In this document: positions 41,482 through 62,227 of the stretch, one piece after another
Layout of the letters: the number at the start of each line of letters is the position of its first letter
How positions within the stretch are numbered: the first letter of the stretch is position 1
NCBI RefSeq assembly: GCF_037572775.1
Contig: NZ_JBBHKA010000001.1
Coordinates: 3,162,001-3,226,000, forward strand
Source: Ramlibacter sp. PS4R-6
GTDB lineage: Bacteria > Pseudomonadota > Gammaproteobacteria > Burkholderiales > Burkholderiaceae_C
Direction: 5' to 3'
DNA length: 64,000 nucleotides
Notes under the pieces: model-generated
Told to the model about the DNA's origin: nothing
Seen by the model: only the letters and a program-made list of their open reading frames with translations
The model's database searches: none
Translations under genes and position numbers: made by a program

Positions 41482-42435
41482 TCAAGTCGGGATCAGGAAG
41501 TCGCGGCTGATGCGCCCGCCCAGCTCGTTCACGCGGTCGAGGAACTGCGTGAGGTAGGCGTGCAGGCCGGTGGCGAGGATCTCGTCGATGCTGCCGTACT
41601 GCAGCTCCGCCTGCAATTTGCCGGCGCGGCGCTGCGTCTCGGCCGACTGGTCGTTGGCCACGGCGGCGAGGTTGTGCACGACCTCGTTCAGGCTCGCGTG
41701 CAGCGAACGCGGCATGTCGGGGCGCAGGATCAAGAGGTCGGCCACGCGCTCGGGCTTGATCACGTCGCGGTACACCTTGCGGTAGATCTCGAAGCCGGAC
41801 ACCGAGCGCAGGATCGCGCTCCAGTGGTAGAAGTCGTACTCCTGGTCCTTCTCGCTGGCGGCGCCGAAGAAGTCGCTCTGCACGGCATGGAACTTCACGT
41901 CGACAAGGCGCGCGGTGTTGTCCGAGCGCTCCAGGAAGGTGCCCAGGCGCATGAAGTGCAGCGCCTCGTCCATCAGCATCGTGCCGACGGTGACGCCACG
42001 CGACAGGTGCGAGCGGAACTTCACCCATTCGAAGAACTGGCCCGGGTCCGTCTCGAACTCGCCGGCGCGGATCATGCGGTTGGCTTCGAGCCAGGTCTGG
42101 TTGATGGTTTCCCAGGCTTCGGTGGTGAGCGAGCCGCGAACGGCCCGCGCGTTCTCGCGCGCCGCCTTCAGGCAGGACATGATGGACGAGGGATTGCTCT
42201 CGTCCTTGACCATGAACTGCATGACGCTGTGCGGGATGACGTCGCCGTGCTTGGCGCTGTAGGCCGGCATCAGCTCGCTGATCGACAGCATGCCTTGCCA
42301 GCCGACCTGCGCGACGGCGGCCGATTGCGGCAGCAGCGACGTCTGGTAATTGACGTCGAGCATGCGGGCGGTGTTCTCGGCCCGCTCCGTGTAGCGGGCC
42401 ATCCAGAACAGGTGATCGGCTGTGCGCGAGAGCAT
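41482..42435 (-). CDS. Alpha-E domain protein (DUF403)
   Basis: A 317-residue, almost all-helical protein of the alpha-E family. The N-terminus MLSRTADHLFWMARYTERAE is the family signature; later segments include SVMQFMVKDESNPSSIMSCL and LGTFLERSDNTARLVDVKF. It has no known enzymatic motif and is thought to act with the circularly permuted ATP-grasp protein encoded one base upstream. Its fused counterpart forms the C-terminal part of the protein at 58688-61333, sharing LFWxxRYTERxENTAR. Translational coupling with the ATP-grasp gene implies a complex. Confidence 0.9.
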   Translation of the reverse strand: MLSRTADHLFWMARYTERAENTARMLDVNYQTSLLPQSAAVAQVGWQGMLSISELMPAYSAKHGDVIPHSVMQFMVKDESNPSSIMSCLKAARENARAVRGSLTTEAWETINQTWLEANRMIRAGEFETDPGQFFEWVKFRSHLSRGVTVGTMLMDEALHFMRLGTFLERSDNTARLVDVKFHAVQSDFFGAASEKDQEYDFYHWSAILRSVSGFEIYRKVYRDVIKPERVADLLILRPDMPRSLHASLNEVVHNLAAVANDQSAETQRRAGKLQAELQYGSIDEILATGLHAYLTQFLDRVNELGGRISRDFLIPT

Positions 42436-42436
42436 G

Positions 42437-43933
42437 TCAGGCCTCCAGCACCCAGGTGTCCTTCGTGCCCCCGCCCTGCGACGAGTTCACGACCAGCGAG
42501 CCTTCCTTCAGCGCCACGCGCGTGAGGCCGCCGGGCACCATCTGCACCTCCTTGCCCGAGAGCACGAAGGGCCGCAGGTCGATGTGGCGCGGGGCGATGC
42601 CGGCGTCCACGAACGTCGGGCAGGTGGACAGCGACAGCGTGGGCTGCGCGATGTAGCCCGAGGGGTTGGCGAGCATCGCCTTGCGGAAGTCCTCGATCTC
42701 CTGCTTCGTCGCGGCCGGCCCGACCAGCATGCCGTAGCCGCCCGCGCCGTGCACTTCCTTGACCACGAGGTTCGGCAGGTCGGCCAGGACGTACTTGAGG
42801 TCCTCGTCGTCGTGGCACTGGTACGTGGGCACGTTCTTGAGGATCGGTTTCTCGCCCAGGTAGAACTCGATCATCTTGGGCACGTAGGGGTAGATCGACT
42901 TGTCGTCGGCCACGCCCGTGCCCACCGCATTGCAGATCGTCACGTTGCCGGAGCTGTAGGCCTCGAGCAGCCCGGCGCAACCGAGCGTCGACGTCGGGCG
43001 GAACACGGAGGGGTCGAGGAAGTCGTCGTCGACGCGCCGGTAGATCACGTCGACCCGCTTCGGGCCGCGCGTGGTGCGCATGTAGACGTAGCGGTCCTTC
43101 ACGAAGAGGTCCTGCCCCTCGACCAGTTCCACGCCCATCTGCTGCGCGAGGAAGGCGTGCTCGAAGTAGGCGCTGTTGTACATGCCGGGCGTGAGCACCA
43201 CGACCGTCGGGTCCGGCGCGCCCGGCTGCGCGCAGGAGCGCAGCGTCTCGAGCAGCAGGTCGGGGTAGTGCATGACCGGCGCGACCTTGTGCGACGAGAA
43301 CAGGTGCGGGAACAGCCGCATCATCATCTTGCGGTCTTCCAGCATGTAGCTCACGCCGCTGGGCACGCGCAGGTTGTCCTCCAGCACGTAGTACTCGCCC
43401 TCGCCCTTGGCGTTGGGCGCGCGCACGATGTCGATGCCGGCAATGTGCGAATACACCCGGTGCGGCGTGTAGACGCCCATCATCTCCTTGCGGAACTGCG
43501 CGTTGTTCAGCACGCGGTCGGCCGGGATGACGCCGGCGCGCAGGATCTCCTGCTCGTGGTAGACGTCGTGCAGGAAGCGATTGAGGGCCGTCACGCGCTG
43601 CACCAGGCCGCGCTCCATCTCGGCCCATTCGTGGGCGGGGATGATGCGGGGGATCAGGTCGAAGGGGATGAGGCGCTCGGTGCCCGCGCCTTCCTCGTCC
43701 TTGGCGCCGTACACGGCGAAGGTGATGCCGACGCGGCGGAAGATCATCTCCGCCTCTTCGCGGCGGGCATCCATCGATTGCTGCGGCTGGCGGGCCAGCC
43801 ATTGGGCGTACTCGCCGTAGTGGCCGCGCACGCCTTGCATCTGCACCTGCGATTGCCCGCCCTGCGACTGCGCCTGGAACCGGAAGGCCCCGTCGGCGGG
43901 CAACTGCGCGAACATCTCGTCGAATTTCTGCAT
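42437..43933 (-). CDS. Circularly permuted type 2 ATP-grasp protein (DUF404/DUF407)
   Basis: A 498-residue protein of the circularly permuted ATP-grasp class predicted to be an amide- or peptide-bond-forming ligase. Seen are VYGAKDEEGAGTERLIPFDL, VPSGVSYMLEDRKMMM, LTPGMYNSAYFEHAFLAQQM, YRRVDDDFLDP, TICNAVGTGVADDKSIYPYV and the nucleotide-lysine segment LVVKEVHGAGGYGMLVGP, with a closing PGGLTRVALKEGSLVVNSSQ. The ATG at 43933 (MQKFDEMF) follows CCGGAG; the open frame upstream is probably untranslated. It lies 52 bases after comEC on the same strand and is followed by alpha-E and TPR-glycosyltransferase genes. Substrates are unknown. Confidence 0.9.
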   Translation of the reverse strand: MQKFDEMFAQLPADGAFRFQAQSQGGQSQVQMQGVRGHYGEYAQWLARQPQQSMDARREEAEMIFRRVGITFAVYGAKDEEGAGTERLIPFDLIPRIIPAHEWAEMERGLVQRVTALNRFLHDVYHEQEILRAGVIPADRVLNNAQFRKEMMGVYTPHRVYSHIAGIDIVRAPNAKGEGEYYVLEDNLRVPSGVSYMLEDRKMMMRLFPHLFSSHKVAPVMHYPDLLLETLRSCAQPGAPDPTVVVLTPGMYNSAYFEHAFLAQQMGVELVEGQDLFVKDRYVYMRTTRGPKRVDVIYRRVDDDFLDPSVFRPTSTLGCAGLLEAYSSGNVTICNAVGTGVADDKSIYPYVPKMIEFYLGEKPILKNVPTYQCHDDEDLKYVLADLPNLVVKEVHGAGGYGMLVGPAATKQEIEDFRKAMLANPSGYIAQPTLSLSTCPTFVDAGIAPRHIDLRPFVLSGKEVQMVPGGLTRVALKEGSLVVNSSQGGGTKDTWVLEA

Positions 43934-43985
43934 GGGCGGCTCCGGGTGACAGGATAGCAACTTCCGGGCCGTGCAAGGAGCACTC

Positions 43986-46325
43986 TCAGGGAACACGATG
44001 ATGCCAATAGCGGGCGGCGGCCTCGCGCTGGCATGCGACGCGATCCGGCTCGCCCGATGCCCACCGCGCCGCTCCGCAATGCGCCGAGTCGACGACGGCG
44101 ATGCCGCGCTCGCGGTAGCGCTCCACCACCGGCGCCGCGGGGTGCCCGAAGCGGTTGCGGTAGCCGGCCTGCACGAGCGCGAAGCGGGGCTTCACGGCGT
44201 CGAGGAAATCGGCGGTGGACGACGTCTTGCTCCCGTGGTGGGGCACCAACAGCACGTCGGCCTGCAGGGGCGCGGCGGCTGCGACCAGTCGCGCCTCCTG
44301 CGGGGCCTCCAGGTCGCCGGCCAGCAGCGCCGTGCGGCGGCCGTTGCCCACGCGCAGCACGCAGCTGATGGCATTGGGCTTGGCCGCGGCCGCGTAGTCC
44401 GCGGGCAGCGGGTGCAGCACGTCGAAAGCGACGCCGTCCCATTCCCAGCGCATGCCCGCCACGCAGCGCGCGCCGGGCCGCAAGGCTTGCAGTTCGTGGC
44501 CTTCCTCCAGCGAGCTCAGGAGCGATGCGCCCGGCTGCATGGCCAGCACCGCCTGCGCGCCGCCCGTGTGGTCGCTGTCGCGGTGGCTGAGCACCACCGT
44601 GTCCACCCGCTCGTCGAAGGCGCGCAACAGGGGCACGACCACGCGATGGCCCGCATCGCTTTCGGGCCCGTAGCGTGGGCCCGCGTCGTAGACCAGCGTG
44701 TGCGTGGCCGTGCGGACCACCAGCGCATTGCCCTGCCCCACGTCCGCCGCGACCAGCTCGAACTCGCCCGCCGGCGGCCGCGGCGCCTGCCACAGCACGA
44801 TGGGCAGCAGCAGCGGCACGCCCAGCACCTTCACGCCCCAGGGCAGCCGCATCGCCAGCAGCAAGCCACCGGCGACACCCAGCACGCCCGCCCACAACGG
44901 CGCGGCAGGCCACGACACCGTCGCGAGCTGCCAGGACGCGAGCCATTCGAGCAGCGACTGCAGCACCTGCATCGCACCCGCGGCCGCATCCCACAGGACG
45001 TTCCATGCCACTCCGGCGAGCGCCAGCGGCGTTATGACCAGCGTCACCCACGGGATGGCGATCGCATTCGCGGCCAGCCCCACCACCGACACCTGCCCGA
45101 ACAGCAGCAGCGTCAGCGGCGTGAGCGCGAGGGTCACCACCCATTGCTCGTGCAGCGACGCGCGCACGGCGTGCACGATGCCTTTGCCTTTCGCACCACC
45201 AGGATCGGTGGCGAAGAGCACACCCACCGCGACGAAACTGAGCCAGAAGCCCGCCTGCAGCATGGCCCACGGGTCGATGGCGACGACCACGGCGCACGCG
45301 AGGAGCCAGACATGCGGCCAGGGCCAGCGCCGGCCCGACAGCCGCAGCAAGGCGACAGTCGCCAGCATCCACACCGTGCGCTGCGCCGGCACGCCCCAGC
45401 CCGAGAACACGGCATAGGCCGCGGCCAGCACCACGCCGCCGGCCAGCGCCGCGTGCTGCGCCGGCCACGCCAGGCACAGCCGCGCGCTGCGCCGCCAGAG
45501 CGCGCCCACCAGCAGCGACGCGGCCCAGCCGAACATCGTGATGTGCAGGCCCGAGATGCTCATGAGGTGCGCGACGCCGGTGGCGCGGAAGACGTCCCAG
45601 TCAGCGCGCTCGATCGCGTTCTGGTCGCCGGTGACGAGCGCGGCGATCACGCCGGCCGTCTTGCGATCCTCGATGCGGCGCAGGATCGCGTCGCGCACGG
45701 ATTGGCGCGCGCGCTCGACGGGATGCAGCCACGACTGCCCCAGGCGCTGCGGCACCGGATCGCCCTTGCCCGTGCGGACGTAGCCCGTGGCCTGCACGCC
45801 CTGCTCCCACAGCCACAGCTCGTAGTCGAAGCCGTGCGGGTTGAGGTTGCCGTGCGGCGCCTTCAGGCGCACCGTGAAGCGCCAGCGCTCGCCCGCCTGC
45901 AGCTCCGGCACCGCGCGCGTGAATTCGAGCGTGCCCGCGTCTTCCGCCGCCAGCGGCCCGTACCAGCCCAGCTGCAGCAGGCGCGGCAGGCGTGCGTCGG
46001 AGCCCTCCACTTCGAAGCGGAAGCGCACGCCGCCTTCGTCGCGCTGCGGCATGGCGGCCACGACGCCGGTGACGGCGATGTCGCGTCCTTCGAGCGAAGG
46101 AGGCAGCGCCTGCGACTGGAAGGAAGCCGCGCGCAGGCCGGTGAGCGCGACAGCAAGGAAGACCGCACCCAGGAAGACTCCCGGACGGCGACGCGTGAGC
46201 ACGAGCGCCACTCCCACGGCCGCGCAGGCCGCATAGGCCCACGCCGCCCACAGCTGCGCCTGCTGCAGCTGCAACGCCGTGCCTGCCACGATGCCGAGCA
46301 GGGCCGGCGCCAGTCCTCTCCCCAT
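43986..46325 (-). CDS. comEC: DNA internalization protein ComEC/Rec2
   Basis: A 779-residue inner-membrane protein. It has an N-terminal hydrophobic pair and DUF4131-type domain, a central competence domain with many helices (MSISGLHITMFGWAASLLVG is the classic start, DWDVFRATGVAHL precedes it), and a C-terminal metallo-beta-lactamase-like domain (VAADVGQGNALVVRTATH, VVLSHRDSDHTGGAQAVLAM, VLLVPHHGSKTSS). It forms the channel for single-stranded DNA in natural transformation, and the C-terminal domain may degrade the other strand. It appears full length, suggesting potential competence. It diverges from the transglutaminase/DUF2126 gene. Confidence 0.94.
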   Translation of the reverse strand: MGRGLAPALLGIVAGTALQLQQAQLWAAWAYAACAAVGVALVLTRRRPGVFLGAVFLAVALTGLRAASFQSQALPPSLEGRDIAVTGVVAAMPQRDEGGVRFRFEVEGSDARLPRLLQLGWYGPLAAEDAGTLEFTRAVPELQAGERWRFTVRLKAPHGNLNPHGFDYELWLWEQGVQATGYVRTGKGDPVPQRLGQSWLHPVERARQSVRDAILRRIEDRKTAGVIAALVTGDQNAIERADWDVFRATGVAHLMSISGLHITMFGWAASLLVGALWRRSARLCLAWPAQHAALAGGVVLAAAYAVFSGWGVPAQRTVWMLATVALLRLSGRRWPWPHVWLLACAVVVAIDPWAMLQAGFWLSFVAVGVLFATDPGGAKGKGIVHAVRASLHEQWVVTLALTPLTLLLFGQVSVVGLAANAIAIPWVTLVITPLALAGVAWNVLWDAAAGAMQVLQSLLEWLASWQLATVSWPAAPLWAGVLGVAGGLLLAMRLPWGVKVLGVPLLLPIVLWQAPRPPAGEFELVAADVGQGNALVVRTATHTLVYDAGPRYGPESDAGHRVVVPLLRAFDERVDTVVLSHRDSDHTGGAQAVLAMQPGASLLSSLEEGHELQALRPGARCVAGMRWEWDGVAFDVLHPLPADYAAAAKPNAISCVLRVGNGRRTALLAGDLEAPQEARLVAAAAPLQADVLLVPHHGSKTSSTADFLDAVKPRFALVQAGYRNRFGHPAAPVVERYRERGIAVVDSAHCGAARWASGEPDRVACQREAAARYWHHRVP

Positions 46326-46353: not shown

Positions 46354-46370
46354 CGCCGACATCGTCGGCG
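46354..46370. promoter_or_regulatory. Operator-like dyad in the comEC/transglutaminase divergent gap
   Basis: CGCCGAC-atc-GTCGGCG has perfect 7-base arms with a 3-base centre, in the 71-base gap between the two divergent start codons. A TAGGAT resembling a -10 for the rightward gene is at about 46386-46391. It could coordinate both directions, though GC-rich dyads also arise by chance. Confidence 0.4.
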
Positions 46371-46396
46371 GGCCCCACTCTTGCTAGGATGGATCC

Positions 46397-49300
46397 ATGT
46401 CCATCCATGCCGCGCTGAACCACGTCAGCCACTACCAGTACGACCGCCCCGTGCAGCTCGGCCCGCAGGTGGTGCGTTTGCGGCCCGCGCCGCACACGCG
46501 CAGCAAGATCGTCTCGTATTCGCTCAAGGTCGAACCGGCGCAGCACTTCATCAACTGGCAGCAGGACCCGTTCGCCAACTACCAGGCGCGGCTGGTGTTC
46601 CCGGAGAAGACGACGCAGTTCACCGTGACGGTGGACCTGGTCGTCGAGATGGCGGTCTACAACCCCTTCGACTTCTTCCTGGAGCCCAGCGCCGAGAAAT
46701 TCCCCTTCCAGTACGACGCGGCACTGAAGGAGGAGCTCGGGCCCTACCTGGCGCCCGAGCCGGCCTCGGCGCTGGTGGAAGCGTACCTGCGCAAGATCGA
46801 CCGCAAGCCGCTGCCGACGATCGACTTCCTGGTGACGCTGAACCAGATGCTCCAGCGCGACATCCGCTACCTCATTCGCATGGAGCCCGGCGTGCAGACG
46901 CCGGAGGAGACGCTGCGCAACGCCAGCGGGTCGTGCCGCGACTCGGGCTGGCTCCTGGTGCAGCTGCTGCGGCACCTGGGCCTGGCGGCGCGCTTCGTCT
47001 CCGGCTACCTGATCCAGCTCGCACCCGACGTGAAGGCGCTCGATGGGCCGAGCGGCACTTCCGTCGACTTCACCGACCTGCACGCGTGGTGCGAGGTGTA
47101 CCTGCCCGGCGCCGGCTGGATCGGCCTCGATCCCACGTCGGGCCTGCTCGCAGGCGAAGGGCACGTGCCGCTCGCCTGCACGCCGCAGCCTTCGGGCGCG
47201 GCGCCGATCGAAGGCCTGGTGGACGAAGCAGAGGTGGAGTTCCGCCACGAGATGAAGGTCACGCGCATCTGGGAATCGCCGCGCGTGACCAAGCCCTACA
47301 CCGAGGAGCAATGGGACGACGTGCTGGCGCTGGGCGATGAAGTCGATAGCGCATTGCAGGCCGGCGACGTGCGCCTGACCATGGGCGGCGAGCCCACCTT
47401 CGTGTGCGTGGACAACCGCGACGCCGCCGAATGGAACACCGACGCGCTCGGGCCCACCAAGCGCAGCTTCGCGACGCAGCTGGTGCACAAGCTGCGCAAG
47501 GAATATGGCGAGGGCGGCTTCCTGCATTTCGGGCAGGGCAAGTGGTACCCGGGCGAACAGCTGCCGCGCTGGGCGCTGTCGATCTACTGGCGCGCCGACG
47601 GCCAGCCGTGCTGGCGCGACCCGTCGCTCTTCGCCGACGAGCGCGAGCCCGCCCACTACACCACGGCGGATGCGGAGCGCTTCATCCGCAAGCTCACGGC
47701 CAACCTGGGCCTGGGCGACGACTACGTGCGTGCCGGCTACGAGGACGTCTTCTATTACATGTGGCGCGAAAGGCGCCTGCCGGTCAACGTCGATCCCTTC
47801 GAATCGAAACTCGACGACGAGCTGGAGCGCGCGCGCCTGCGCCGCGTGTTCGAGCAGAAGCTCGAAGCCGTCGTCGGCTACGTGCTGCCGCTGCGCGCCG
47901 ACGAGGCGGGCCCGCCGCTCGCCGGCACGCGCTGGGTGAGCGGCCCCTGGTTCCTGCGCGACGACCGCCTCTTCCTCGTGCCGGGCGACTCGCCGATGGG
48001 GTACCGCCTGCCGCTCGATTCGTTGCCCTGGTCGAAGGCGGGCGAACGGCAGCAGGTGATCGAGGTGGACCCGATGGCGCCGCGCGATGCACTGCCGACG
48101 CAGGTCGCTTTCCAGCCGCGCGATGGCCGCAAGACGACGCCGGCGGCAACCGCCCCCAAACGCGGCGAATCGGCGGGCGACCTCACGCGCACCGCCTTGT
48201 GCGTGGAAGTGCGCGACCCGCAGCGCGCCAACGGCCCCAAGGCCGAACGCGAAGCCGGCGGCAAGGGGAACGCGCTCTATGTCTTCATGCCGCCGCTCGA
48301 GCGCGTGGAGGACTACCTGGAACTGCTCTCCGCGATCGAGCACACGGCGAGCGAGCTGGGCGTGAAGGTCGTGCTCGAAGGCTACCCGCCGCCCCGCGAC
48401 CCGCGCCTGAAGCTGCTGCAGGTCACGCCCGACCCCGGCGTGATCGAGGTCAACATCCATCCCGCGCACGACTGGAAGGAGCTGGTGCAGCACACCGAGT
48501 TCCTGTACCAGGCCGCGTTCGAGACGCGCCTGACCGCCGAGAAGTTCATGACCGACGGCCGCCACACCGGCACGGGCGGCGGCAACCACTTCGTCATGGG
48601 CGGCGCCACCCCCGCCGATTCACCCTTCCTGCGCAAGCCCGAGGTGCTGGCCAGCCTGCTCCTCTTCTGGCACAACCACCCGTCGCTGTCGTACCTGTTC
48701 TCCGGCCTGTTCATCGGGCCCACCAGCCAGGCGCCGCGCGTGGACGAGGCGCGCAACGACCAGCTGTACGAACTGGAGATCGCGCTGGAGCAAATCGCGC
48801 GCAACCGCCAGCAATACGGCGAGGCGATGCCGCCCTGGGTGGTGGACCGCACGCTGCGCAACATCCTCATCGACGTCACCGGCAACACGCACCGCAGCGA
48901 GTTCTGCATCGACAAGATGTACTCGCCCGACGGCTCGACCGGCCGCCTGGGCTTGCTGGAGTTGCGCGCCTTCGAGATGCCGCCGCACGCGCGCATGAGC
49001 ATCGTGCAGCAGCTCCTGATCCGCGCGCTCGTCGCCCGCTTCTGGCGCGAACCCTACCGCGCCAGCGTCACGCGCTGGGGCACGCAGCTGCACGACCGCT
49101 TCCTGCTGCCCACCTTCGTGTGGATGGATTTCCACGACGTGATCGCCGAGATGAACCAGGCCGGCTATGCCTTCGACGCCGCGTGGTTCGCGCCGCATTT
49201 CGAGTTCCGCTTCCCGCTGGTGGGCGAGGTCCAGACCACCGGCATGGAGCTGCACCTGCGCAACGCGCTGGAGCCGTGGCACGTGATGGGCGAGGAAGGC

Positions 49301-53571: not shown

Positions 53572-53572
53572 C

Positions 53573-55134: not shown

Positions 55135-55138
55135 CCCC

Positions 55139-56200
55139 TTGAAGAAACTTGCCCCCATCGCTGCCGCCGCCTTCCTGGCGTGCGGCTTCGCCCAAGCCCA
55201 GACCTCGTCGGTCCAGATCTTCGGCCTGCTGGACCTGAACGTCGGCCACTACACCGGCGGCGGCGTGTCGCAGACCGTGCTCGGCACCGACGGCTACCAG
55301 TCCAGCCGCCTCGGCTTCCGCGGCCAGGAAGACCTCGGCGGCGGCCTGCAGGCCTCGTTCTGGCTCGAGTCCGGCATCAACCCCGATTCGGGCACCGGCG
55401 GCACCACCAACACCAACAACCAGTCGACCGGCGGCGCCGGCGGCGGCGGCATCGTGTTCGGCCGCCGTTCCACGGTGAGCCTGTCGGGTGCCTTCGGCGA
55501 GCTGCGCCTGGGCCGCGACTACACGCCGGGCTTCTGGAACCTGTCCAACTTCCACCCCTTCGGCACGAACGGCGTCGGCTCGGCCGGCATCCTGTTCTAC
55601 CCGGTGCAGGGCGGCGCCCGCATCACCAACGTGCGTGCCTCCAACTCGATCGGCTACTTCCTGCCCAAGATGTCGAGCGGCATCTACGGCCAGGCCATGT
55701 ACGCGATCGCCGAGAACCTGTCGACCTCGGCCACGCGCCAGGACGGCCGCCTCGTCGGCATCCGCCTCGGCTACGCCGGCGGCCCGATCGACGCCGCCTT
55801 CGGCTACAGCAAGACCACGCTGACGCCGGTGGGCGACTTCACGCAGATCAACCTGGGCGGCACGTACGACTTCGGCATGGCCAAGGTCTTCGCGCTGTGG
55901 GGCCAGAACAAGGTGGGCGCCACCAAGACCAAGCCCTGGAACATCGGCGTGCACGTGCCGGTGGGCGCGGGCGTGATCCGCGCCGCCTACGGCCGCGTGA
56001 AGACCACGGGCGTCGCCAACGACGCCGGCCAGTTCACGGTGGGCTACCTGCACAACCTGTCGAAGCGCACCGCGCTGTACACCAACTTCTCGGCGATCGA
56101 CAACAAGGGCACGGGCACGAACTACAACGTCGGTGCGCCCGTCACGGTGCCCGGCGGCAATTCGCGCGGCTACGAGGCCGGCATCCGCCACAGCTTCTAA
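55139..56200 (+). CDS. Outer-membrane porin (Gram-negative trimeric type)
   Basis: A 353-residue porin of the betaproteobacterial Omp32/OmpC-like family: a signal peptide (KKLAPIAAAAFLACGFAQA), a mature start QTSSVQIFGLLDLNVGHY, the DGYQSSRLGFRGQEDLGGGL strand pair, RSTVSLSGAFGELRLGRDYT and a C-terminal YEAGIRHSF ending in Phe, as needed for assembly. It forms a diffusion channel and, behind tctCBA, may admit tricarboxylates. The start is TTG with AGGAG inside a stable hairpin, an unusual combination suggesting translational control. A strong terminator follows. Confidence 0.94.
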   Translation: MKKLAPIAAAAFLACGFAQAQTSSVQIFGLLDLNVGHYTGGGVSQTVLGTDGYQSSRLGFRGQEDLGGGLQASFWLESGINPDSGTGGTTNTNNQSTGGAGGGGIVFGRRSTVSLSGAFGELRLGRDYTPGFWNLSNFHPFGTNGVGSAGILFYPVQGGARITNVRASNSIGYFLPKMSSGIYGQAMYAIAENLSTSATRQDGRLVGIRLGYAGGPIDAAFGYSKTTLTPVGDFTQINLGGTYDFGMAKVFALWGQNKVGATKTKPWNIGVHVPVGAGVIRAAYGRVKTTGVANDAGQFTVGYLHNLSKRTALYTNFSAIDNKGTGTNYNVGAPVTVPGGNSRGYEAGIRHSF

Positions 56201-56225
56201 GAAGAAAAGCAGGACTCCAAGGTCG

Positions 56226-56254
56226 GCGCCCCGCGGAAGCGGGGCGCTTTTTTT
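56226..56254 (+). terminator. Rho-independent terminator after the porin gene
   Basis: GCGCCCCGC and GCGGGGCGC pair over 9 bp across a GGAA loop, followed by seven T residues (56248-56254). The T-run touches the TAA stop of the convergent minus-strand gene. Confidence 0.93.
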
Positions 56255-56831
56255 ATGGGGCCATCGCTCCGGCCGAAGCAGGTTCGCTCGCGCCGGCGCC
56301 GACGCGCTGCGGGTTCGATGTGACGCTGCCGACGAAGTACAGCGCCGCCAGGACCTGCGCCAGGTCGGCGTCGGGCAGCCCGGCGCGCTCGCGCAACTCG
56401 TCGAACGTGCAGGGCCGCAGCGCCAGTTCGCGCATGACCACGAGGTGCCGGTCGTCCACCAGCTTGCCGTCGACGCGCGGTGGCCGCCGGAAGTAGATGG
56501 GCGCGCGCCGATAGCGCCGCGGCAGCACGTCGTGCCGCGTGCGCAGCACGTACTGCCACATCAGCTGCGCGAGCCCTACACGCGCGAAGTTATCGGGCAC
56601 GCGCTTGTCCTCGCGGTGGATGCGCGTGCACATCGCCGAATCGAAGTCCGCCGCGCCGGCACGCGGCAGCACGGCGACTTCTTCGGGCATGTCCAACACG
56701 GCAATCAGCCGGCCTCCGGCACGCAGCTCGAACGCGCCGGAACGCAGCATGTCCTGCTGCTCGACCACCAGCGCAGCGACACGCAGTTGCGCCGTCACCG
56801 ACGCAAGCTGGCGTTCGATGTGCTCGAGCAC
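56253..56831 (-). CDS. Hypothetical protein, possible C-terminal winged helix
   Basis: A 192-residue protein I do not recognise. The N-terminal half is helical then beta-rich (EHIERQLASVTAQLRVAALV, AFELRAGGRLIAVLDMPEEV); the middle is rich in Arg and aromatic residues (YVLRTRHDVLPRRYRRAPIY); the C-terminal LALRPCTFDELRERAGLPDA with the following helix resembles a winged-helix domain. No signal peptide or membrane segment. The start is unclear: GTG 56831 lacks a ribosome-binding site, and a CTG at 56840 would overlap the preceding stop (CTGA). It directly follows the orphan Bug gene and is probably coupled to it. Confidence 0.65.
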   Translation of the reverse strand: MLEHIERQLASVTAQLRVAALVVEQQDMLRSGAFELRAGGRLIAVLDMPEEVAVLPRAGAADFDSAMCTRIHREDKRVPDNFARVGLAQLMWQYVLRTRHDVLPRRYRRAPIYFRRPPRVDGKLVDDRHLVVMRELALRPCTFDELRERAGLPDADLAQVLAALYFVGSVTSNPQRVGAGASEPASAGAMAP

Positions 56832-56836
56832 GGCCG

Positions 56837-57796
56837 TCAGAGCATGCCGGACAGGTACATGATCGCCCGCAGGCTCGAGAACTCGTACTCCACGAAGTCC
56901 TCGAAGTCCTTGCCGGTGGACAGCGACGGCGTCCAGCCGTTCTTGGCGAGCGCTTCCTGCCACGCCTTCGTGCGCGTGGCCTTCACGACGCTGTCGGCCA
57001 GTTCGGCGCGCTGTTCTCCCGAGATGCCCGGCGCGCCGTAGACGCCGCGCCAGTTGCCGATCACCACGTCCCAGCCCTGCTCCTTGAGCGTGGGCACGGC
57101 GAGGCCAGGCAGGCGTTTTTGCGACGTCACGCCGATCGCGCGCATCTTGCCGGCGGCGATGTGCTCGGCGAATTCGCTGTAGCCGCTGCCGCCCACGGTG
57201 ACGTTGCCGCCGAGGATGGCGGAGACCGCTTCGCCGCCGCCGCGGAAGGCGACGTAATTGACCTTCTTGGGATCGACGCCGACGTTGCGCGCGAGCATGC
57301 ACGCTGCGATGTGCTCGGTGGCGCCGCGCGAGCCGCCACCCCAGCGCACGCTGGCGGGCTCGCGCTTGAGCTGCTCCACCACGTCCTTCATCGAACGCAG
57401 CGGCGAAGCGGCCGGCACGACGAACACGTTGTACTCGCTGGTCAGGCGCGCGACGGGCGTGCACGACTGCAACTGCACCGGCGGCTTGGCGGTGATGAGG
57501 CCGCCAACCATCACCGCGCCCATCATCATCAGCGCCTGCGGGTCGCCCTTGGCGCCCTGCGCGAACTGCGCCAGGCCCAGCACGCCGGCGGCGCCGCCCT
57601 TGTTCTCGTACTGCACGGCATCGGCCGCGCCCGCTTCGACGAGCGCACGCCCCAGCGCGCGGCCGGTCGTGTCCCAGCCGCCGCCGGGGTTGGCGGGGAT
57701 CATCATCTTGAGCGTGCTCGCGGCACGGGCGGAAAAAGGCAGCCCGCCCGCCAGGGCGAGGGCTGCCATTCCATGGAGGAACTGTTGTCGGCGCAT
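56837..57796 (-). CDS. Orphan Bug/TctC-family receptor, paralogue of TctC
   Basis: A 319-residue periplasmic receptor: signal peptide RRQQFLHGMAALALAGGLPF, mature MMIPANPGGGWDTTGRALGR, GGGSRGATEHIAACML and NVTVGGSGYSEFAEHIAAGK. Many stretches are identical to TctC at 52122-53075, so the two are close paralogues. It has no permease genes of its own and points towards the porin. It could feed TctAB with a second ligand or act with a sensor. GAGGAGACAAG precedes the ATG. Two cysteines in the mature part (in SCTPVARL and AACMLARN) are absent from TctC. Confidence 0.92.
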   Translation of the reverse strand: MRRQQFLHGMAALALAGGLPFSARAASTLKMMIPANPGGGWDTTGRALGRALVEAGAADAVQYENKGGAAGVLGLAQFAQGAKGDPQALMMMGAVMVGGLITAKPPVQLQSCTPVARLTSEYNVFVVPAASPLRSMKDVVEQLKREPASVRWGGGSRGATEHIAACMLARNVGVDPKKVNYVAFRGGGEAVSAILGGNVTVGGSGYSEFAEHIAAGKMRAIGVTSQKRLPGLAVPTLKEQGWDVVIGNWRGVYGAPGISGEQRAELADSVVKATRTKAWQEALAKNGWTPSLSTGKDFEDFVEYEFSSLRAIMYLSGML

Positions 57797-57831
57797 GCTT
57801 GTCTCCTCGACGTTGCATGCGCATCGTTGGC

Positions 57832-57852
57832 CAGCGGCCTGTCAGGCCGCTG
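57832..57852. terminator. Strong inverted repeat between orphan Bug gene and small lipoprotein
   Basis: CAGCGGCCTG and CAGGCCGCTG are perfect 10-base arms about a single T; as RNA the stem would be 7-8 bp with a TGTCA-type loop. It lies 60-80 bases downstream of the minus-strand lipoprotein stop and 36 bases upstream of the Bug start. No T-run. Confidence 0.5.
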
Positions 57853-57889
57853 TCAACCGCATCGGGATTACCCGAAGGACGAACTGGAT

Positions 57890-57905
57890 CCCGGCCTGCG
57901 CCGGG
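57890..57905. repeat. REP-like palindrome, copy B
   Basis: CCCGGC-ctgc-GCCGGG, the inverted-orientation copy of the element at 12912-12927; the shared block ATCCCGGCCTGCGCCGGG is identical over 18 bases. It lies just after the minus-strand lipoprotein gene, again at a transcript end. Confidence 0.55.
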
Positions 57906-57911
57906 ACATGC

Positions 57912-58238
57912 TTACTTCGTGGTGCCGGTGGCGCCCATCTGCTTCTGGGCCTGCTCGGCTTCCTTTTCCTTCGCCGTCTTCACGTCGACGGTGGGGACCT
58001 CGATGGTCTTCTTCTGCGTCTCGACCTTCGGCACGGTGATGGTCGCGTCCTTGGTGCCGACCTTCACGTCGGGCGTGGTCACGTCGTACTTCGGCAGCGT
58101 GACGTCACCGGACTGCTTCTTCTCGACTTCGTACTTCGGCACCGTGACGTTGCCTTCCTGCGTCTTCTTGACGTCGCAGGCCGCGAGGCCCAGCGCAGTG
58201 GCAACGGCCAGGGCGGTGGCGAGGGTGGTCTTGAACAT
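57912..58238 (-). CDS. Small predicted lipoprotein with VPKY-type repeats
   Basis: A 108-residue protein. The signal peptide MFKTTLATALAVATALGLAAC ends in the lipobox LAAC, so it should be lipidated. The mature part is built from imperfect units: GNVTVPKYEVEKKQ, GDVTLPKYDVTTPD, ATITVPKVETQKKT and IEVPTVDVKTAKE, rich in Lys, Val, Thr and Pro, then a Glu/Gln/Lys helix-like tail. I do not recognise the family. AGGGAG precedes the ATG. Likely periplasm-facing; charged repeats could contact peptidoglycan or the envelope surface, which is speculation. Confidence 0.8.
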   Translation of the reverse strand: MFKTTLATALAVATALGLAACDVKKTQEGNVTVPKYEVEKKQSGDVTLPKYDVTTPDVKVGTKDATITVPKVETQKKTIEVPTVDVKTAKEKEAEQAQKQMGATGTTK

Positions 58239-58330
58239 GGTCACTCCCTTCGAAAAATGGTTTCGATGAAGCCATTCTTCCGGGGGCGGCGAAGCCCGGC
58301 TGTAGGAGTTGGCCGCCGCCCCTTGTGAGC

Positions 58331-58534
58331 TCAGCGCTCCGGGGCCTGGTCGTCCTCGTGCCCGGGGCCCCACGTGCGCGCGCCGTGCTGGCGCTTGTGG
58401 CGCAAGGCGTGCTCTGCCTTCATCCGCTCGAGGGCGCTGGCGGAGCCGGCGCCGCCGCGCTGCATGTCGTCCTGTGTGTCGCTGTCCTGCTTCGGGTCCG
58501 GCGCGGCCGGATCCCTGCGATGGTTCGCACTCAT
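58331..58534 (-). CDS. Small hypothetical hydrophilic protein
   Basis: A 67-residue protein, strongly hydrophilic and rich in Arg, Asp, His and Gln (MSANHRRDPAAPDPKQDSDT... ending EDDQAPER), with no signal peptide or membrane segment and probably largely disordered, apart from a short helix (ASALERMKAEHALRHKRQ). ATG 58534 is preferred, with AGGAAA upstream; ATG 58564 (MKKRQGNTPR) would add 10 residues. Unassigned, and could be a false gene. Confidence 0.45.
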   Translation of the reverse strand: MSANHRRDPAAPDPKQDSDTQDDMQRGGAGSASALERMKAEHALRHKRQHGARTWGPGHEDDQAPER

Positions 58535-58687
58535 CCTGGGTGTATTTCCTTGACGCTTCTTCATTGACGTCGCCCATGGCTGGGCGCGCGGCGCGAATCT
58601 ATCAAATACGACCGCAGGCCTGCAACGCGAAGTTTCGAGGGCGCCGCCTCGTCGCACTTCGACACCATCCATACGCCCTTGTGTTGG

Positions 58688-61333
58688 ATGCACGCGACCG
58701 AAGCACAGCCGTTTCGCTGGGCCTCAGTCATTCGCGCCGACAATACGGCTGAGGTGGACAACAAGCACGACCCCGTCGATTCCCTCTTCGGCGACACCGC
58801 CGACGCGCCGGCCGCCCTCGCCGCGGCAATGGCGCCGCCTGCCGCATCCGCGCATTACGACGAGCTGCGCGGCGGCTCGCGCGAAGCGCTGGGCCAGCAT
58901 TGGGAACGTTTCTTCGAGCACCTCGGCCCCGCGGGCTTCGCGGACCTGAACCGCCGCACGCTCAACCTCGAGCGGCAGGTGCGCGACAACGGCATCACCT
59001 ACAACGTCTACGCCGACGCGCACGGGCCGCAGCGCCCGTGGTCGCTGGACCTCTTCCCGCTGGTGGTCACGCCGCAGGCGTGGCAGCAGCTCGAGGCCGG
59101 CGTGCTGCAACGCGTGAAGCTGCTGGACCGCGTCCTGGCCGACGTGTACGGGCCGCAGGACCTGCTGGCGCGCAACCTCCTGCCGCCCGCGCTGGTGCAA
59201 GGCCATCCCGGCTACCTGCGCGCGATGCACGGCGTCACACCGCCCGGCGGCACGCGCCTGCACATCGCGGCCTTCGACCTGGCCCGCGACGAGCAAGGCG
59301 CGTGGTGGGTCGTGTCGCAGCGGACGCAGGCGCCCTCGGGCCTGGGCTACCTGCTGGAGAATCGGCTGATCATCTCGCGCCTGTTCCCGGAGGCCTTCCG
59401 CGACCTGAAGGTGCAGCGGCTGGCGGGGACGTACCGCGCGCTGGCCGACGCGCTGCGCGCCATGTGCCCGCGCGATCCCGACGGGCGCGACACGCGCATC
59501 GTGCTGCTCACGCCGGGCCCGTACAACGAGACGTACTTCGAGCACGCCTACCTCGCGCGGTACCTGGGCCTGACGCTGGTGGAGGGTAGCGACCTCACCG
59601 TGCGCGGCGACCGCCTCTTCCTCAAGACGCTGCAGGGCCTGGAGCCCGTGCACGGCATCCTCAAGCGCGTGGACGACGAGTTCCTCGACCCGTTGGAGCT
59701 GCGATCCGATTCGCACCTGGGCGTGCCGGGCCTGCTGCAGGCGGTGCGCGCGGGCAACGTGCTCGTCGCGAATGCGCCGGGCTCGGCCTTCCTCGAATCG
59801 ACCGGCATCCTCGGTTTCCTGCCGGCGCTGTCGCGCCACCTGCTGGGCGAAGAGCTGCAGCTGCCGTCGCTGCCCACGTGGTGGTGCGGCGAGCGCGCGG
59901 CGCTGGAGGCGGCGTTGCCGCAGATCCCGCAAGGCGTGATCAAGCCCACCTACATCGGCCCCGGCGCCGCGGCGGTGCTGGGCCGCACGCTCACGCGCCG
60001 CGCCGCCGACGAATGGGCCGGCCGCATCGTGCGCGAGCCCGACGAGTACACGCTGCAGGGCTACATGCCGCTCGCGCAGATGCCGACGTGGAAGCACGGC
60101 ATGGAGGGCGACCGCATCCTGCCGCGCTCGTACATGCTGCGCGTGTTCGCCATCGCCGACGGCCCGCAATCGTGGCGCGTGCTGCCGGGCGGCCTCACGC
60201 GCATCGCCAGCGCCAACCTGGAGATCGCCTCGATGCAGCGCGGCGGCTCCAGCGCCGACACCTGGGTGATGACCGAGGGCGAGGTCGACGCGACGACGCT
60301 GCTGCACCACGAGCAGCCGGCCGGCGACATCGCGCACCACGGCCGGTCCGTCACGAGCCGCGCGGCCGAGAACCTGTTCTGGCTGGGGCGCTACACCGAG
60401 CGCACCGAAAACACCGCGCGCTTGGCGCGCCTGGCCCTGGAGGTGTTGAACGGCGAGGACCAGTCCTCGCCGCCGCTGCTGGCGTGGCTGACCGAGGTGG
60501 GCCGCGCCAACGGCCTGGTCGTGGCCGCCGTGCCGCCGGCCCTTCAATCGCGGCGAGTGTTCGAGCGTTCCATCGTCGCGGGCCTGGCCGACACACGCAC
60601 CGCCACCAGCGTCGGCTACAACCTGCGCGCGCTGCGCAGCGCGGCATCGGCCGTGCGCGAACGCCTGTCGGTGGAGCAGTGGAACGTGATCGTGCGCGCC
60701 GAGCAGGAGTTCTTCCGCGGCTGCGCGATGGCCACCGAGGACGGCGAGTTCTCGTCGGTCGAGGCGATCCGCGTGCTGGAGGCGCTGCTCGGCGCCACCG
60801 CCGCGATGACGGGCGCGCAGACCGACCGCATGACACGCGACGACGGCTGGCGGCTGCTGTCCACCGGGCGGCACCTGGAGCGCCTGGGCTTCCTGGCGTC
60901 GGCGCTCGGCTGGTCCTTCGACAAGGGCTCCGTGTTCGAGGAAGGCGGCTTCGAAGCGATCGTGGCGCTCTTCGACAGCACCATCACCTTCCACTCGCAA
61001 TACCAGCAGCGCCACGACATCCCGGCGCTCGCCGACCTGCTTGTGATCGACCGCGACAACCCGCGCTCGCTGGGCTGGGTCGCGCAAACGTTGCGCGGAC
61101 GGCTGGCGAAGCTCGCAGGATCGCCGGCGGGAGAGAAGCCCGAGATCGCGCAGACCGTGCCGGACCCGCAGGCCTGGTCGCTGGCCGCCTTGTGCGAGCG
61201 GGATGCCGACGGCCGCTACGCGAAACTCGAGCAACTGCTGCAGGACTGCACCGATGCCGCGTTCCGCCTCTCCGACGAGCTGGGCGGCCGCTACTTCACA
61301 CACTCCGACACGCGCCAGAGCGTCGGCGCCTGA
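58688..61333 (+). CDS. Fused circularly permuted ATP-grasp and alpha-E protein
   Basis: An 881-residue fusion. Residues about 50-545 match the permuted ATP-grasp protein at 42437-43933 (LTPGPYNETYFEHAYLARYL, KRVDDEFLDPLELRSDSHLG, PGGLTRIASANLEIASMQRG); residues about 555-870 match the alpha-E protein (AAENLFWLGRYTERTENTAR near residue 560). The nucleotide-lysine segment reads GVIKPTYIGPGAAAVLG instead of VVKEVHGAGGYGMLVGP, and NVLVANAPGSAFLESTGILG replaces NAVGTGVADDKSIYPYV, so the two active sites differ. Predicted amide- or peptide-bond ligase with helical partner. Start is uncertain: ATG 58688, TTG 58679 or GTG 58754, none with a good ribosome-binding site. A transglutaminase gene follows after 6 bases. 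Confidence 0.88.
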   Translation: MHATEAQPFRWASVIRADNTAEVDNKHDPVDSLFGDTADAPAALAAAMAPPAASAHYDELRGGSREALGQHWERFFEHLGPAGFADLNRRTLNLERQVRDNGITYNVYADAHGPQRPWSLDLFPLVVTPQAWQQLEAGVLQRVKLLDRVLADVYGPQDLLARNLLPPALVQGHPGYLRAMHGVTPPGGTRLHIAAFDLARDEQGAWWVVSQRTQAPSGLGYLLENRLIISRLFPEAFRDLKVQRLAGTYRALADALRAMCPRDPDGRDTRIVLLTPGPYNETYFEHAYLARYLGLTLVEGSDLTVRGDRLFLKTLQGLEPVHGILKRVDDEFLDPLELRSDSHLGVPGLLQAVRAGNVLVANAPGSAFLESTGILGFLPALSRHLLGEELQLPSLPTWWCGERAALEAALPQIPQGVIKPTYIGPGAAAVLGRTLTRRAADEWAGRIVREPDEYTLQGYMPLAQMPTWKHGMEGDRILPRSYMLRVFAIADGPQSWRVLPGGLTRIASANLEIASMQRGGSSADTWVMTEGEVDATTLLHHEQPAGDIAHHGRSVTSRAAENLFWLGRYTERTENTARLARLALEVLNGEDQSSPPLLAWLTEVGRANGLVVAAVPPALQSRRVFERSIVAGLADTRTATSVGYNLRALRSAASAVRERLSVEQWNVIVRAEQEFFRGCAMATEDGEFSSVEAIRVLEALLGATAAMTGAQTDRMTRDDGWRLLSTGRHLERLGFLASALGWSFDKGSVFEEGGFEAIVALFDSTITFHSQYQQRHDIPALADLLVIDRDNPRSLGWVAQTLRGRLAKLAGSPAGEKPEIAQTVPDPQAWSLAALCERDADGRYAKLEQLLQDCTDAAFRLSDELGGRYFTHSDTRQSVGA

Positions 61334-61339
61334 GAAGCC

Positions 61340-62227
61340 ATGCTGCTCAACGTCGTCCACGAAACCCGCTACGAGTACGCGCCGGCCGTGCGCACGGCGC
61401 AGCACCTGGCGCACCTGAAGCCCGCGCACGGCGCGCGCCAGCAGCTGGTGTCGCACGAGCTCGAGATCGACCCGCAGCCCGTGCAGCGCAGCGAAGCGAC
61501 GGACGTGTGGGGCAACGCGCGCACCTTCTTCAGCCTGCAGGCCCAGCACGAGGAGCTGAAGGTGACGGCGCGCAGCGTCGTTTCCACATCCCCGGCGCCC
61601 GCGGTGCTCAGCGAGATGCCGTGGGAGGAGGCGCGCGAGCGCATGCGCTACCACCGCGGCGCCGCCTACGACCCGGCGGCGGAGTTCCTGTTCGCCTCGC
61701 CGTACGTGCCGCGCCACGCGGACTTCATCGAGTACGCCCTGCCCTGCTTCCCGGCGGGCCGCCCGCTGGTCGACGCGGCACGCGACCTGATGGCGCGCAT
61801 CCACGCCGACTTCGAGTACGAGACCGAGGCCACCGACGTCGGCACGCCCGCGCTCGAGTCGCTGCAGCTGCGCAAGGGCGTGTGCCAGGACTTCGCGCAC
61901 ATCATGCTGGCCTGCCTGCGCAGCCTGGGCCTGCCGGCGCGCTACGTCAGCGGCTACCTGTTGACCGAGCCCGCGCCGGGCCGGGAGCGGCTCGTGGGCA
62001 GCGATGCGTCGCATGCGTGGGTGTCGGTCTACGTGCCTGGCGACGGCAGCACCGGCGACTGGCTCGACCTCGACCCCACCAACCGCCGCGTGCCGGGCGA
62101 GGACTACGTCGTCCTCGCCACCGGCCGCGACTACTCCGACGTCTCGCCCATCCGTGGCGTGATCGATGGCGGCGCCAATCACCTCCTGCACGTAGCGGTC
62201 ACCGTCACTCCTACAATCGCGGCCTGA
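61340..62227 (+). CDS. Transglutaminase-like cysteine protease family protein
   Basis: A 295-residue soluble protein with an N-terminal beta domain (LNVVHETRYEYAPAVRTAQH, MLAHLKPAHG-type strand) and a C-terminal papain-like transglutaminase core. The triad is intact: Cys182 in KGVCQDFAH, His225 in DASHAWVSVY and Asp245 in LDLDPTN. Relatives are predicted peptidases linked to permuted ATP-grasp and alpha-E proteins. It is 6 bases downstream of that fusion and probably forms one operon with it. No signal peptide, so it acts in the cytoplasm. Confidence 0.9.
   Translation: MLLNVVHETRYEYAPAVRTAQHLAHLKPAHGARQQLVSHELEIDPQPVQRSEATDVWGNARTFFSLQAQHEELKVTARSVVSTSPAPAVLSEMPWEEARERMRYHRGAAYDPAAEFLFASPYVPRHADFIEYALPCFPAGRPLVDAARDLMARIHADFEYETEATDVGTPALESLQLRKGVCQDFAHIMLACLRSLGLPARYVSGYLLTEPAPGRERLVGSDASHAWVSVYVPGDGSTGDWLDLDPTNRRVPGEDYVVLATGRDYSDVSPIRGVIDGGANHLLHVAVTVTPTIAA

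What the first reader, a model, noticed from the sequence alone, without database searches (positions are those of the whole stretch)
41482..62227. Two paralogous ATP-grasp/alpha-E/transglutaminase sets within about 20 kb, one split and one fused
Seen: separate permuted ATP-grasp (42437-43933) and alpha-E (41482-42435) genes with a giant transglutaminase/DUF2126 gene (46397-49765), and a second set in which ATP-grasp and alpha-E are one polypeptide (58688-61333) followed by a small transglutaminase (61340-62227). Both alpha-E parts share LFWxxRYTERxENTAR, and both transglutaminases keep Cys-His-Asp. Known: this association has been predicted to form an amide/peptide synthesis and cleavage system (amidoligase surveys of ATP-grasp proteins), but I know of no proven product. 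Inference: two parallel pathways making related but distinct small peptides or protein tags.
Basis: partly seen in the sequence, partly recalled or inferred. Interest (0 to 1): 0.75.

Follow-up and report, generated by a model that had tools for sequence, protein, structure and literature searches.

The report
Live and dead peptide-ligase gene sets
Two related bacterial gene sets thought to make and cut small peptide-like molecules sit side by side, but the second set's ligase has lost key metal- and ATP-binding residues in the relatives examined, so it is probably a helper protein rather than a second working enzyme.

Summary
Two readings change.

(1) The giant transglutaminase-DUF2126 gene belongs with the fused set: it lies upstream of the fused gene on the same strand in 92 of 110 loci, under 500 bp away in 79. 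Here 8.9 kb of other genes part them.

(2) The two ATP-grasps are not parallel enzymes. The metal-ligand pair E-x-N is kept in 91 of 91 split and 0 of 109 fused sequences, and in 0 of 40 further fused sequences from the phylum. The DLR aspartate and most of the glycine loop go too, yet the fold stays. The two types part at one deep branch, so the duplication is old.

Fused genes were found only in genomes with another alpha-E copy: 27 of 27 in an order sample. Split operons carry sigma-54-like promoters in 32 of 40 loci, matching published NtrC control in a relative.

Best reading: a nitrogen-starvation amidoligase/peptidase system with one active ATP-grasp and one pseudo-ligase partner. Activity, partner and product are untested.

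The parts
41482..42435 (-). Split-set alpha-E protein (P0001, 317 aa)
   Evidence: PF04168 E 9e-101; ER motifs kept
42437..43933 (-). Split-set circularly permuted ATP-grasp, predicted active; open frame reaches GTG 43996 (P0002)
   Evidence: PF14403 E 6e-165; solved relative 3n6x, 722 bits; metal and glycine-loop motifs intact
43956..43971 (-). Sigma-54-like -24/-12 site CGGCCCGGAAGTTGCT, 22 bp before ATG 43933, short of consensus
   Evidence: sites of at least 13.5 on the same score in 32 of 40 thinned loci
43986..46325 (-). ComEC-like competence gene between the two divergent operons (neighbour, not part of the system)
   Evidence: PF03772, DUF4131, Lactamase_B
46370..46385 (+). Weak sigma-54-like site GGGCCCCACTCTTGCT, 11 bp before the DUF2126 start
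   Evidence: unusually close to the ATG
46397..49765 (+). Transglutaminase-DUF2126 protein (P0003, 1122 aa); belongs with the fused set
   Evidence: PF08379, PF01841, PF09899; synteny; 308 columns at least 98% invariant in 86 sequences
49917..58577 (.). Other genes that separate DUF2126 from the fused gene in this genome: sensor kinase, response regulator, TctC-TctB-TctA, a second TctC
   Evidence: Pfam; gap 8,917 bp against under 500 bp in 79 of 92 loci
58688..61333 (+). Fused pseudo-ATP-grasp::alpha-E protein (P0004; frame from TTG 58679)
   Evidence: PF14403, PF04174, PF04168; AlphaFold2 pLDDT 82, pTM 0.78; best fold match 3n6x
59315..59323 (+). Place of the lost metal-ligand motif: S213-Q214-R215 where the split type has E185-D186-N187
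   Evidence: on predicted strand 209-215
61340..62227 (+). Small transglutaminase-like protein (P0005, 295 aa)
   Evidence: PF08379, PF01841; Cys and His in 104 of 104, Asp in 103 of 104 fused-linked relatives

Best explanation
This is one compound locus of a predicted bacterial amide-ligation/cleavage system, in a genome close to Ramlibacter and Caenimonas (Comamonadaceae). The split ATP-grasp (with alpha-E) is the ATP-dependent ligase. The DUF2126 protein is a second candidate amidoligase carrying a transglutaminase-type peptidase. The fused ATP-grasp::alpha-E protein is a pseudo-ligase: it keeps the fold and many other conserved residues but has lost the E-x-N metal site, most of the glycine loop and the DLR acid, so canonical ATP-grasp chemistry is unlikely. 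It most likely works as a non-catalytic partner in the DUF2126/transglutaminase unit, holding or presenting the peptide substrate or switching the ligase. The system is induced by nitrogen starvation through sigma-54/NtrC in relatives. Shown by computation: gene content, loss of residues, old divergence, co-occurrence, synteny, promoter-like sites in relatives. Inferred: the lack of activity, the partner role, the product, and nitrogen control in this very genome.
For: E185 and N187: 91 of 91 split, 0 of 109 fused (one fused has Asp at the Glu place); DLR aspartate 91 of 91 against 0 of 109 (8 short and 4 duplicate rows dropped). Forty more fused sequences, chosen by me from the 125 compiled, 29 family codes: Asn 0 of 40, Glu 2 of 40, both 0 of 40; the split copies seen in the same stretches keep E-x-N in 5 of 5 with that part present. 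HMMER alignment to 3n6x gives the same register. Of 117 columns invariant in the split type, 45 are kept in at least 90% of fused and 35 in under 10%, the lost set including E185, N187, R189, Y400-G401-M402, H450, D452, S484-S485-Q486. dN/dS (NG86) of the fused domains is 0.22-0.53 in three comparisons. Fused is one side of one branch, support 100, Tsukamurella on both sides. Order sample of 150: alpha-E 81, fused 27, DUF2126 50; fused with split 27 of 27, with DUF2126 26 of 27. DUF2126 upstream of fused in 92 of 110 loci. Sigma-54-like sites before split ATP-grasp 32 of 40 against 4 of 40 on the other strand. In Burkholderia cenocepacia a cluster with these domain names is NtrC/sigma-54 dependent (PMC5491218, passages). 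A Yersinia Anbu-operon ATP-grasp releases phosphate from ATP (PMC6376114, passages).
Against: No biochemistry for the fused protein, here or in the passages I saw. DUF2126 is outside the fetched 9 kb in 7 of 40 fused loci and not seen in the Tsukamurella, Sinorhizobium and Sphingomonas fused regions, so a DUF2126 partner next door is not universal. The DUF2126 model is poor (pLDDT 66) and Foldseek matched its transglutaminase part only at E up to 0.001, so 'amidoligase' rests on Pfam's name and recalled literature. The nucleotide-site lysine is kept in 87 of 109 fused copies and single loop glycines in 8 to 32 of 109, so some ligand binding is possible. Window promoter sites are below consensus, the whole-window count of two-mismatch sites is below chance (19 against 31.8), and no NtrC-like site lies within 400 bp of the starts. 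NtrC-like sites with one mismatch allowed are not above shuffles for DUF2126 (14 of 43; shuffle mean 10.7, maximum 17). The fused gene has no sigma-54 enrichment of its own (3 of 39 against 2) and was not found by its expected tags in the NtrC paper.
Confidence: 0.6

Rival explanations
1. The pseudo-ligase partners the active split ATP-grasp (as a regulatory or substrate-binding subunit of a mixed assembly) rather than DUF2126.
For: Fused genes were found only in genomes with a second alpha-E copy: 27 of 27 in the order sample, 125 of 125 hand-compiled in the phylum sample. Fused loci without DUF2126 in the fetched 9 kb exist (7 of 40).
Against: Synteny ties the fused gene to DUF2126 (92 of 110 loci), and 26 of 27 fused genomes in the order sample also have DUF2126.
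Confidence: 0.25
2. The fused ATP-grasp has changed chemistry: a different nucleotide pose, metal or reaction, as some pseudokinases do.
For: The new residues are themselves conserved: Arg 105 of 109 and Gln 99 of 109 in the RTQxPSG motif. A homologous fold, nematode GS-like effectors, lost glutathione synthesis yet still binds ADP and Mg (PMC5919673, passages).
Against: The loop and acids expected to hold phosphates and metal are lost together, and the loop varies in length and sequence; in the nematode case the ATP pocket stayed conserved, unlike here.
Confidence: 0.15
3. Two parallel, active ligase pathways making related products.
For: Both sets have ATP-grasp folds, and DUF2126 may give the second set its own ligase.
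Against: Loss of the metal-ligand pair in the 109 and 40 fused copies examined; nested rather than independent presence.
Confidence: 0.08
4. The fused gene is a decaying or dispensable relic.
For: It evolves faster than the split type: median identity to the window 58% against 76% for ATP-grasp and 48% against 72% for alpha-E over 48 loci.
Against: Open frames kept, dN/dS below 1 and the main alpha-E ER residues intact; 45 columns stay conserved with the split type.
Confidence: 0.03

Closest known systems
Anbu / alpha-E / ATP-grasp / transglutaminase operon (predicted system of Iyer et al. 2009, known to me through citing papers)
   Same: Same protein families: circularly permuted ATP-grasp, alpha-E, transglutaminase-like protein, DUF2126 (that DUF2126 belongs to the published system is recalled)
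   Different: Here Anbu is unlinked (151 kb away); a second, fused ATP-grasp with lost active-site residues is present; the split set has no transglutaminase of its own in this window
3n6x, putative glutathionylspermidine synthase of Methylobacillus flagellatus
   Same: Close relative of the split ATP-grasp (722 bits) and best fold match of the fused one
   Different: 3n6x has the E-x-N motif; the fused protein does not
Eukaryotic glutathione synthetase (3kal and others)
   Same: Related ATP-grasp fold; in the yeast enzyme Asp130, Glu146, Glu386 and Glu442 serve the Mg ions (PMC2845819, passages)
   Different: The fused protein keeps the aspartate of the GID strand (105 of 109) but not the glutamate of the next strand (0 of 109); matching these to Asp130 and Glu146 is my inference
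NtrC/sigma-54 cluster I35_5080-83 of Burkholderia cenocepacia H111
   Same: DUF404/407, DUF403, transglutaminase and large transglutaminase genes, listed at -8.2, -9.4, -9.4 and -6.0 in the ntrC mutant
   Different: Equated by domain names and order, not by sequence; the fused gene is not named in those passages; in the window the genes form two divergent operons

Membership tests
Circularly permuted ATP-grasp fold (PF14403/PF04174) | Profile match over the whole domain and matching fold | tested here: met
   Both copies match full length; fused model matches 3n6x with E 1.4e-30
Catalytic ATP-grasp ligase, split copy | E-x-N metal ligands, glycine-rich loop, DLR acid | tested here: met
   Present in the window; E-x-N and DLR acid 91 of 91, loop glycines 90 or 91 of 91
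Catalytic ATP-grasp ligase, fused copy | E-x-N metal ligands, glycine-rich loop, DLR acid | tested here: not met
   S-Q-R in the window; pair absent in 109 of 109 and 40 of 40; loop glycines kept in 15, 32 and 8 of 109; DLR acid 0 of 109
Alpha-E (PF04168) | Conserved ER motifs | tested here: met
   R13, E17, R18, E168, R169 kept in 98 of 98 split; in fused 107, 105, 107, 104 and 107 of 107. Other split-type residues (N94, R97, R175) are mostly changed in fused
Transglutaminase-like peptidase (PF01841) | Cys-His-Asp triad | tested here: met
   P0003 and P0005; in fused-linked relatives Cys 104 of 104, His 104 of 104, Asp 103 of 104
DUF2126 as glutamine-synthetase-like amidoligase | Glutamine-synthetase-type fold | tested here: inconclusive
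   Pfam name; model pLDDT 66, Foldseek found only the transglutaminase part at E up to 0.001
Anbu operon | Anbu gene in the same operon | tested here: not met
   Genome searches place a clear Anbu homologue at G000:C1:3375408-3376130, outside the window
Sigma-54/NtrC regulon | -24/-12 promoter and NtrC sites | tested here: inconclusive
   Window: two sub-consensus -24/-12 sites, no NtrC-like site within 400 bp. Relatives: -24/-12 before split ATP-grasp 32 of 40 against 4; exact NtrC-like sites 9 of 40 against a shuffle mean of 0.5
Ligase activity of any protein here | ATP-dependent amide formation | not testable with these tools
   Needs purified protein

The most novel reading that the evidence does not exclude
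A widespread, old family of bacterial ATP-grasp pseudoenzymes, fused to alpha-E and seen in Pseudomonadota and one Actinomycetota isolate, that has turned a ligase into an ATP-independent substrate receptor or switch for a separate amidoligase/peptidase during nitrogen starvation.
Probability: 0.45. Interest if true: 0.68.

Novelty: new variant of a known kind. Interest (0 to 1): 0.5.

Why it matters
The product of this widespread predicted system is, as far as I saw, still unknown. Treating both ATP-grasps as ligases would send assays after a product that one of them probably cannot make. Naming the likely active ligase, the pseudo-ligase, the operon groupings and the likely inducing condition (nitrogen starvation) makes the system testable with a small set of deletions and purified proteins. 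If the pseudo-ligase reading is right, it is a clear natural family of ATP-grasp pseudoenzymes, of which my searches of the held library found no report. The key survey, Iyer et al. 2009, was not held, so it may have said so already.

Tried and rejected
Recent local duplication: rejected, the split and fused ATP-grasps part at one deep branch with both types in Tsukamurella (quick tree, and the Tsukamurella fused row is a long branch).

Giant DUF2126 gene as part of the split set: rejected for this lineage by synteny. In genomes where I saw no fused gene, DUF2126 does follow the split set (L030, L033-L037, L041), so the pairing depends on lineage.

Misalignment as the cause of the lost motif: rejected; the register is ungapped, anchored by PSG, and HMMER against 3n6x gives the same pairing.

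Glutamine-synthetase fold of DUF2126: not confirmed. A second structural look with VIA-align was not available. A profile of the split type found only 3n6x among solved structures.

Promoter scans: the unthinned scan gave 50 of 70 against 9 of 70 for split ATP-grasp and 49 of 92 against 14 of 92 for DUF2126. The first thinned scan ended at residue 22 of P0002, upstream of the start codon of some relatives, and gave 17 of 40 against 4; ending at residue 56 gave 32 of 40 against 4. DUF2126 thinned: 17 of 43 against 5 or 7. I changed the region end after seeing the first thinned result.

In one search the Cys column was set one residue off; one search has the correct count. In split-linked small transglutaminases Cys is kept in 28 of 33, and in 2 of 5 that lie alone.

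Papers: searches showed no report of this pseudoenzyme (open-licence library only). Searches added nothing new.
Full report
What is there. Pfam confirms the five genes at the stated places. On the minus strand lie alpha-E (41482-42435) and a circularly permuted ATP-grasp (42437-43933, frame open to 43996). On the plus strand lie a transglutaminase-DUF2126 protein (46397-49765), a fused ATP-grasp::alpha-E protein (58688-61333) and a small transglutaminase (61340-62227). Between them are ComEC, a sensor kinase with response regulator, TctC-TctB-TctA and another TctC; downstream is an AMP-binding enzyme. At E up to 0.001 the genome holds two alpha-E matches, two Bact_transglu_N matches, and an unlinked Anbu homologue that matches solved Anbu structures. 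The fused protein's closest named relatives are from Caenimonas soli and Ramlibacter.

Which gene goes with which. I fetched 40 stretches from the same order, 80 named loci and 8 plasmid regions, and mapped six domains with tblastn. The usual unit is transglutaminase-DUF2126, then fused ATP-grasp::alpha-E, then small transglutaminase: DUF2126 lies upstream on the same strand in 92 of 110 loci with a fused gene, less than 500 bp away in 79 (a lower bound, since a few DUF2126 matches are in two pieces). Many Comamonadaceae loci have the window's layout: alpha-E(-), ATP-grasp(-), a gap that would fit ComEC, DUF2126(+), fused(+), transglutaminase(+), with a short DUF2126-to-fused gap. In the window 8.9 kb parts these two genes. 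So the window shows one compound locus, later broken, and the giant gene belongs to the fused set. The transglutaminase next to split alpha-E in many other loci is a different type, about 24-34% identical to P0005, and is missing here. Where I saw no fused gene, DUF2126 can follow the split set (L030, L033-L037, L041).

The fused ATP-grasp has lost its active site. In the split type the strand motif VLEDNLRxPSG is taken to hold metal ligands. In yeast glutathione synthetase, which Foldseek relates to this fold, Asp130, Glu146, Glu386 and Glu442 serve the Mg ions (PMC2845819, passages); equating the motif's Glu with Glu146 is my inference from spacing. In 200 non-redundant ATP-grasp domains (91 split, 109 fused; 8 short and 4 duplicate rows dropped) Glu and Asn are kept in 91 of 91 split and in 0 of 109 fused. 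Asn became Arg in 105 of 109 and the Arg two places on became Gln in 99 of 109. The DLR aspartate is 91 of 91 against 0 of 109. Three loop glycines are kept in 91, 90 and 91 of 91 split and in 15, 32 and 8 of 109 fused; the lysine before the loop is kept in 87 of 109 fused. A profile of the fused type aligned by HMMER to 3n6x gives the same register. Beyond the order, I fetched 40 fused loci, chosen from 125 compiled, covering 29 family codes of the phylum: Asn 0 of 40, Glu 2 of 40 (L181, L194), both 0 of 40; five split copies in the same stretches that cover the motif all keep it. Some of the 40 may be close to named loci already counted. A Tsukamurella copy (Actinomycetota) is also of the lost type, and the same strain carries an intact split copy. 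Of 117 columns invariant in the split type, 45 are kept in at least 90% of the fused type and 35 in fewer than 10%. The AlphaFold2 model of the fused protein is good (pLDDT 82, pTM 0.78), its best solved match is 3n6x, then glutathione synthetases, and the lost motif sits on predicted strand 209-215.

It is not a relic. dN/dS by a simple method is 0.22, 0.53 and 0.40 for the fused ATP-grasp and 0.26, 0.45 and 0.50 for fused alpha-E in three comparisons; the split ATP-grasp gives 0.16, 0.31 and 0.27. The main ER residues of alpha-E are kept, though N94, R97 and R175 are mostly changed. The fused protein evolves faster than the split copy: median identity to the window 58% against 76% (ATP-grasp) and 48% against 72% (alpha-E) over 48 loci.

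Age and co-occurrence. In a tree of 92 rows (47 split, 45 fused) the fused copies are one side of one branch with support 100, and Tsukamurella falls on both sides (quick method, its fused row is a long branch). In 150 genomes of the order, 81 have alpha-E, 27 have the fused form, 50 have DUF2126; all 27 fused genomes have a split copy, 26 have DUF2126, and all 50 DUF2126 genomes have alpha-E. I classed copies by score and open frame; one of the 27 (G144, a genome rated 84% complete) has a short frame and was classed by score, and it is the one without DUF2126; one of the 50 (G136) has only a 47-bit piece with stops. In 396 phylum genomes I compiled by hand 125 with a long fused-type frame from a list that was cut; all 125 have at least two alpha-E matches, and the 40 fetched were all fused. 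The sets are nested, not independent. The hypergeometric values ignore relatedness.

Regulation. Upstream of the split ATP-grasp, a sigma-54-like site scores at least 13.5 in 32 of 40 thinned loci, against 4 of 40 on the opposite strand; before the fused gene 3 of 39 against 2, before the small transglutaminase 1 of 40 against 2. Before DUF2126 it is 17 of 43 against 7. Among loci where DUF2126 follows the split genes on the same strand, L030, L033-L037, L041, L076, L080, L085 and L089 have none; L008, with a 1.4 kb gap, is not among those without. Exact NtrC-like sites occur before 9 of 40 split ATP-grasps (shuffle mean 0.5, maximum of 50 shuffles 4), 6 of 43 DUF2126 genes (0.6, maximum 3), 1 of 39 fused genes and 1 of 40 small transglutaminases; with one mismatch allowed only the split ATP-grasp exceeds the shuffles (19 of 40; mean 10.8, maximum 16), not DUF2126 (14 of 43; 10.7, maximum 17). 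In the window the sites are CGGCCCGGAAGTTGCT before the split ATP-grasp and GGGCCCCACTCTTGCT before DUF2126, both short of consensus, the second only 11 bp from the ATG; the whole-window number of two-mismatch sites is below chance (19 against 31.8), and the only one-mismatch NtrC-like sites in the 500 bp before the three starts are 401 and 474 bp before DUF2126. Published data agree for relatives: four genes with these domain names are listed at -6.0 to -9.4 in a Burkholderia cenocepacia ntrC mutant (PMC5491218, passages), and PP_2688 (circularly permuted ATP-grasp) and PP_2685 (proteasome-like) are up on nitrate against ammonium in Pseudomonas putida, log2 3.99 and 4.44 (PMC8050072, passages).

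Mechanism. Most likely the split ATP-grasp is the ATP-dependent ligase; a relative from the Yersinia Anbu operon releases phosphate from ATP (PMC6376114, passages). DUF2126 is a second candidate ligase with a transglutaminase-type domain at its N-terminus; its 86 sequences have 308 columns at least 98% invariant, but its amidoligase fold could not be confirmed. The fused protein is best read as a pseudo-ligase partner. Which ligase it serves, and what is made, is inference. Mycobacterium is recalled, from no call, to have both types as well.

Novelty. The system is known as a prediction (Iyer et al. 2009, not held; described in citing passages). My searches showed no report that the alpha-E-fused ATP-grasp is a pseudoenzyme, but the library is open-licence only. 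I call it a new variant of a known kind. On rechecking I lowered confidence in the best reading from 0.62 to 0.60, because the one-mismatch NtrC result for DUF2126 is not above chance.

Noticed in passing
window 34300-36546 (+), with 32604-33578 (+): A TgpA-type transglutaminase (TgpA_N plus Transglut_core) downstream of a MoxR-type AAA ATPase, about 5 kb from the split set: a third transglutaminase near the locus.
   Followed up: partly
window 39803-42028 (-): A mechanical ORF with TPR repeats lies just downstream of split alpha-E on the same strand; the ORF as listed overlaps the alpha-E gene, so its true start is unsure.
   Followed up: no
window 43986-46325 (-) and L155 5811-7424: ComEC lies next to the split set here and also near the split set of Tsukamurella (ComEA, ComEC, DNA polymerase III delta, rpsT); could be chance.
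   Followed up: no
L154 and L155 (NZ_LR134463.1, NZ_LR134460.1): These Tsukamurella records are labelled plasmids but carry aspS, alaS, nadD and rpsT, so they may be pieces of the chromosome.
   Followed up: no
L164 1417-2130 (-), G000:C1:2863737: A second proteasome-like protein in the genome, which by recall resembles the betaproteobacterial proteasome homologue BPH, besides the unlinked Anbu.
   Followed up: partly
L005 (G028): One genome has four alpha-E matches; two split sets and the fused set lie within 20 kb.
   Followed up: no
L073: A record titled Akkermansia muciniphila MAG carries a locus like those of Comamonadaceae records L074 and L075, probably a mislabelled or mixed bin.
   Followed up: no
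window 52122-57796: A TctCBA transporter operon plus an orphan TctC, next to a sensor kinase/response regulator pair, in the stretch that separates DUF2126 from the fused gene.
   Followed up: no
split-linked small transglutaminases, several loci: Five of 33 have lost the catalytic Cys (Ser in 4, Gly in 1), so pseudo-transglutaminases may exist in the split set.
   Followed up: no
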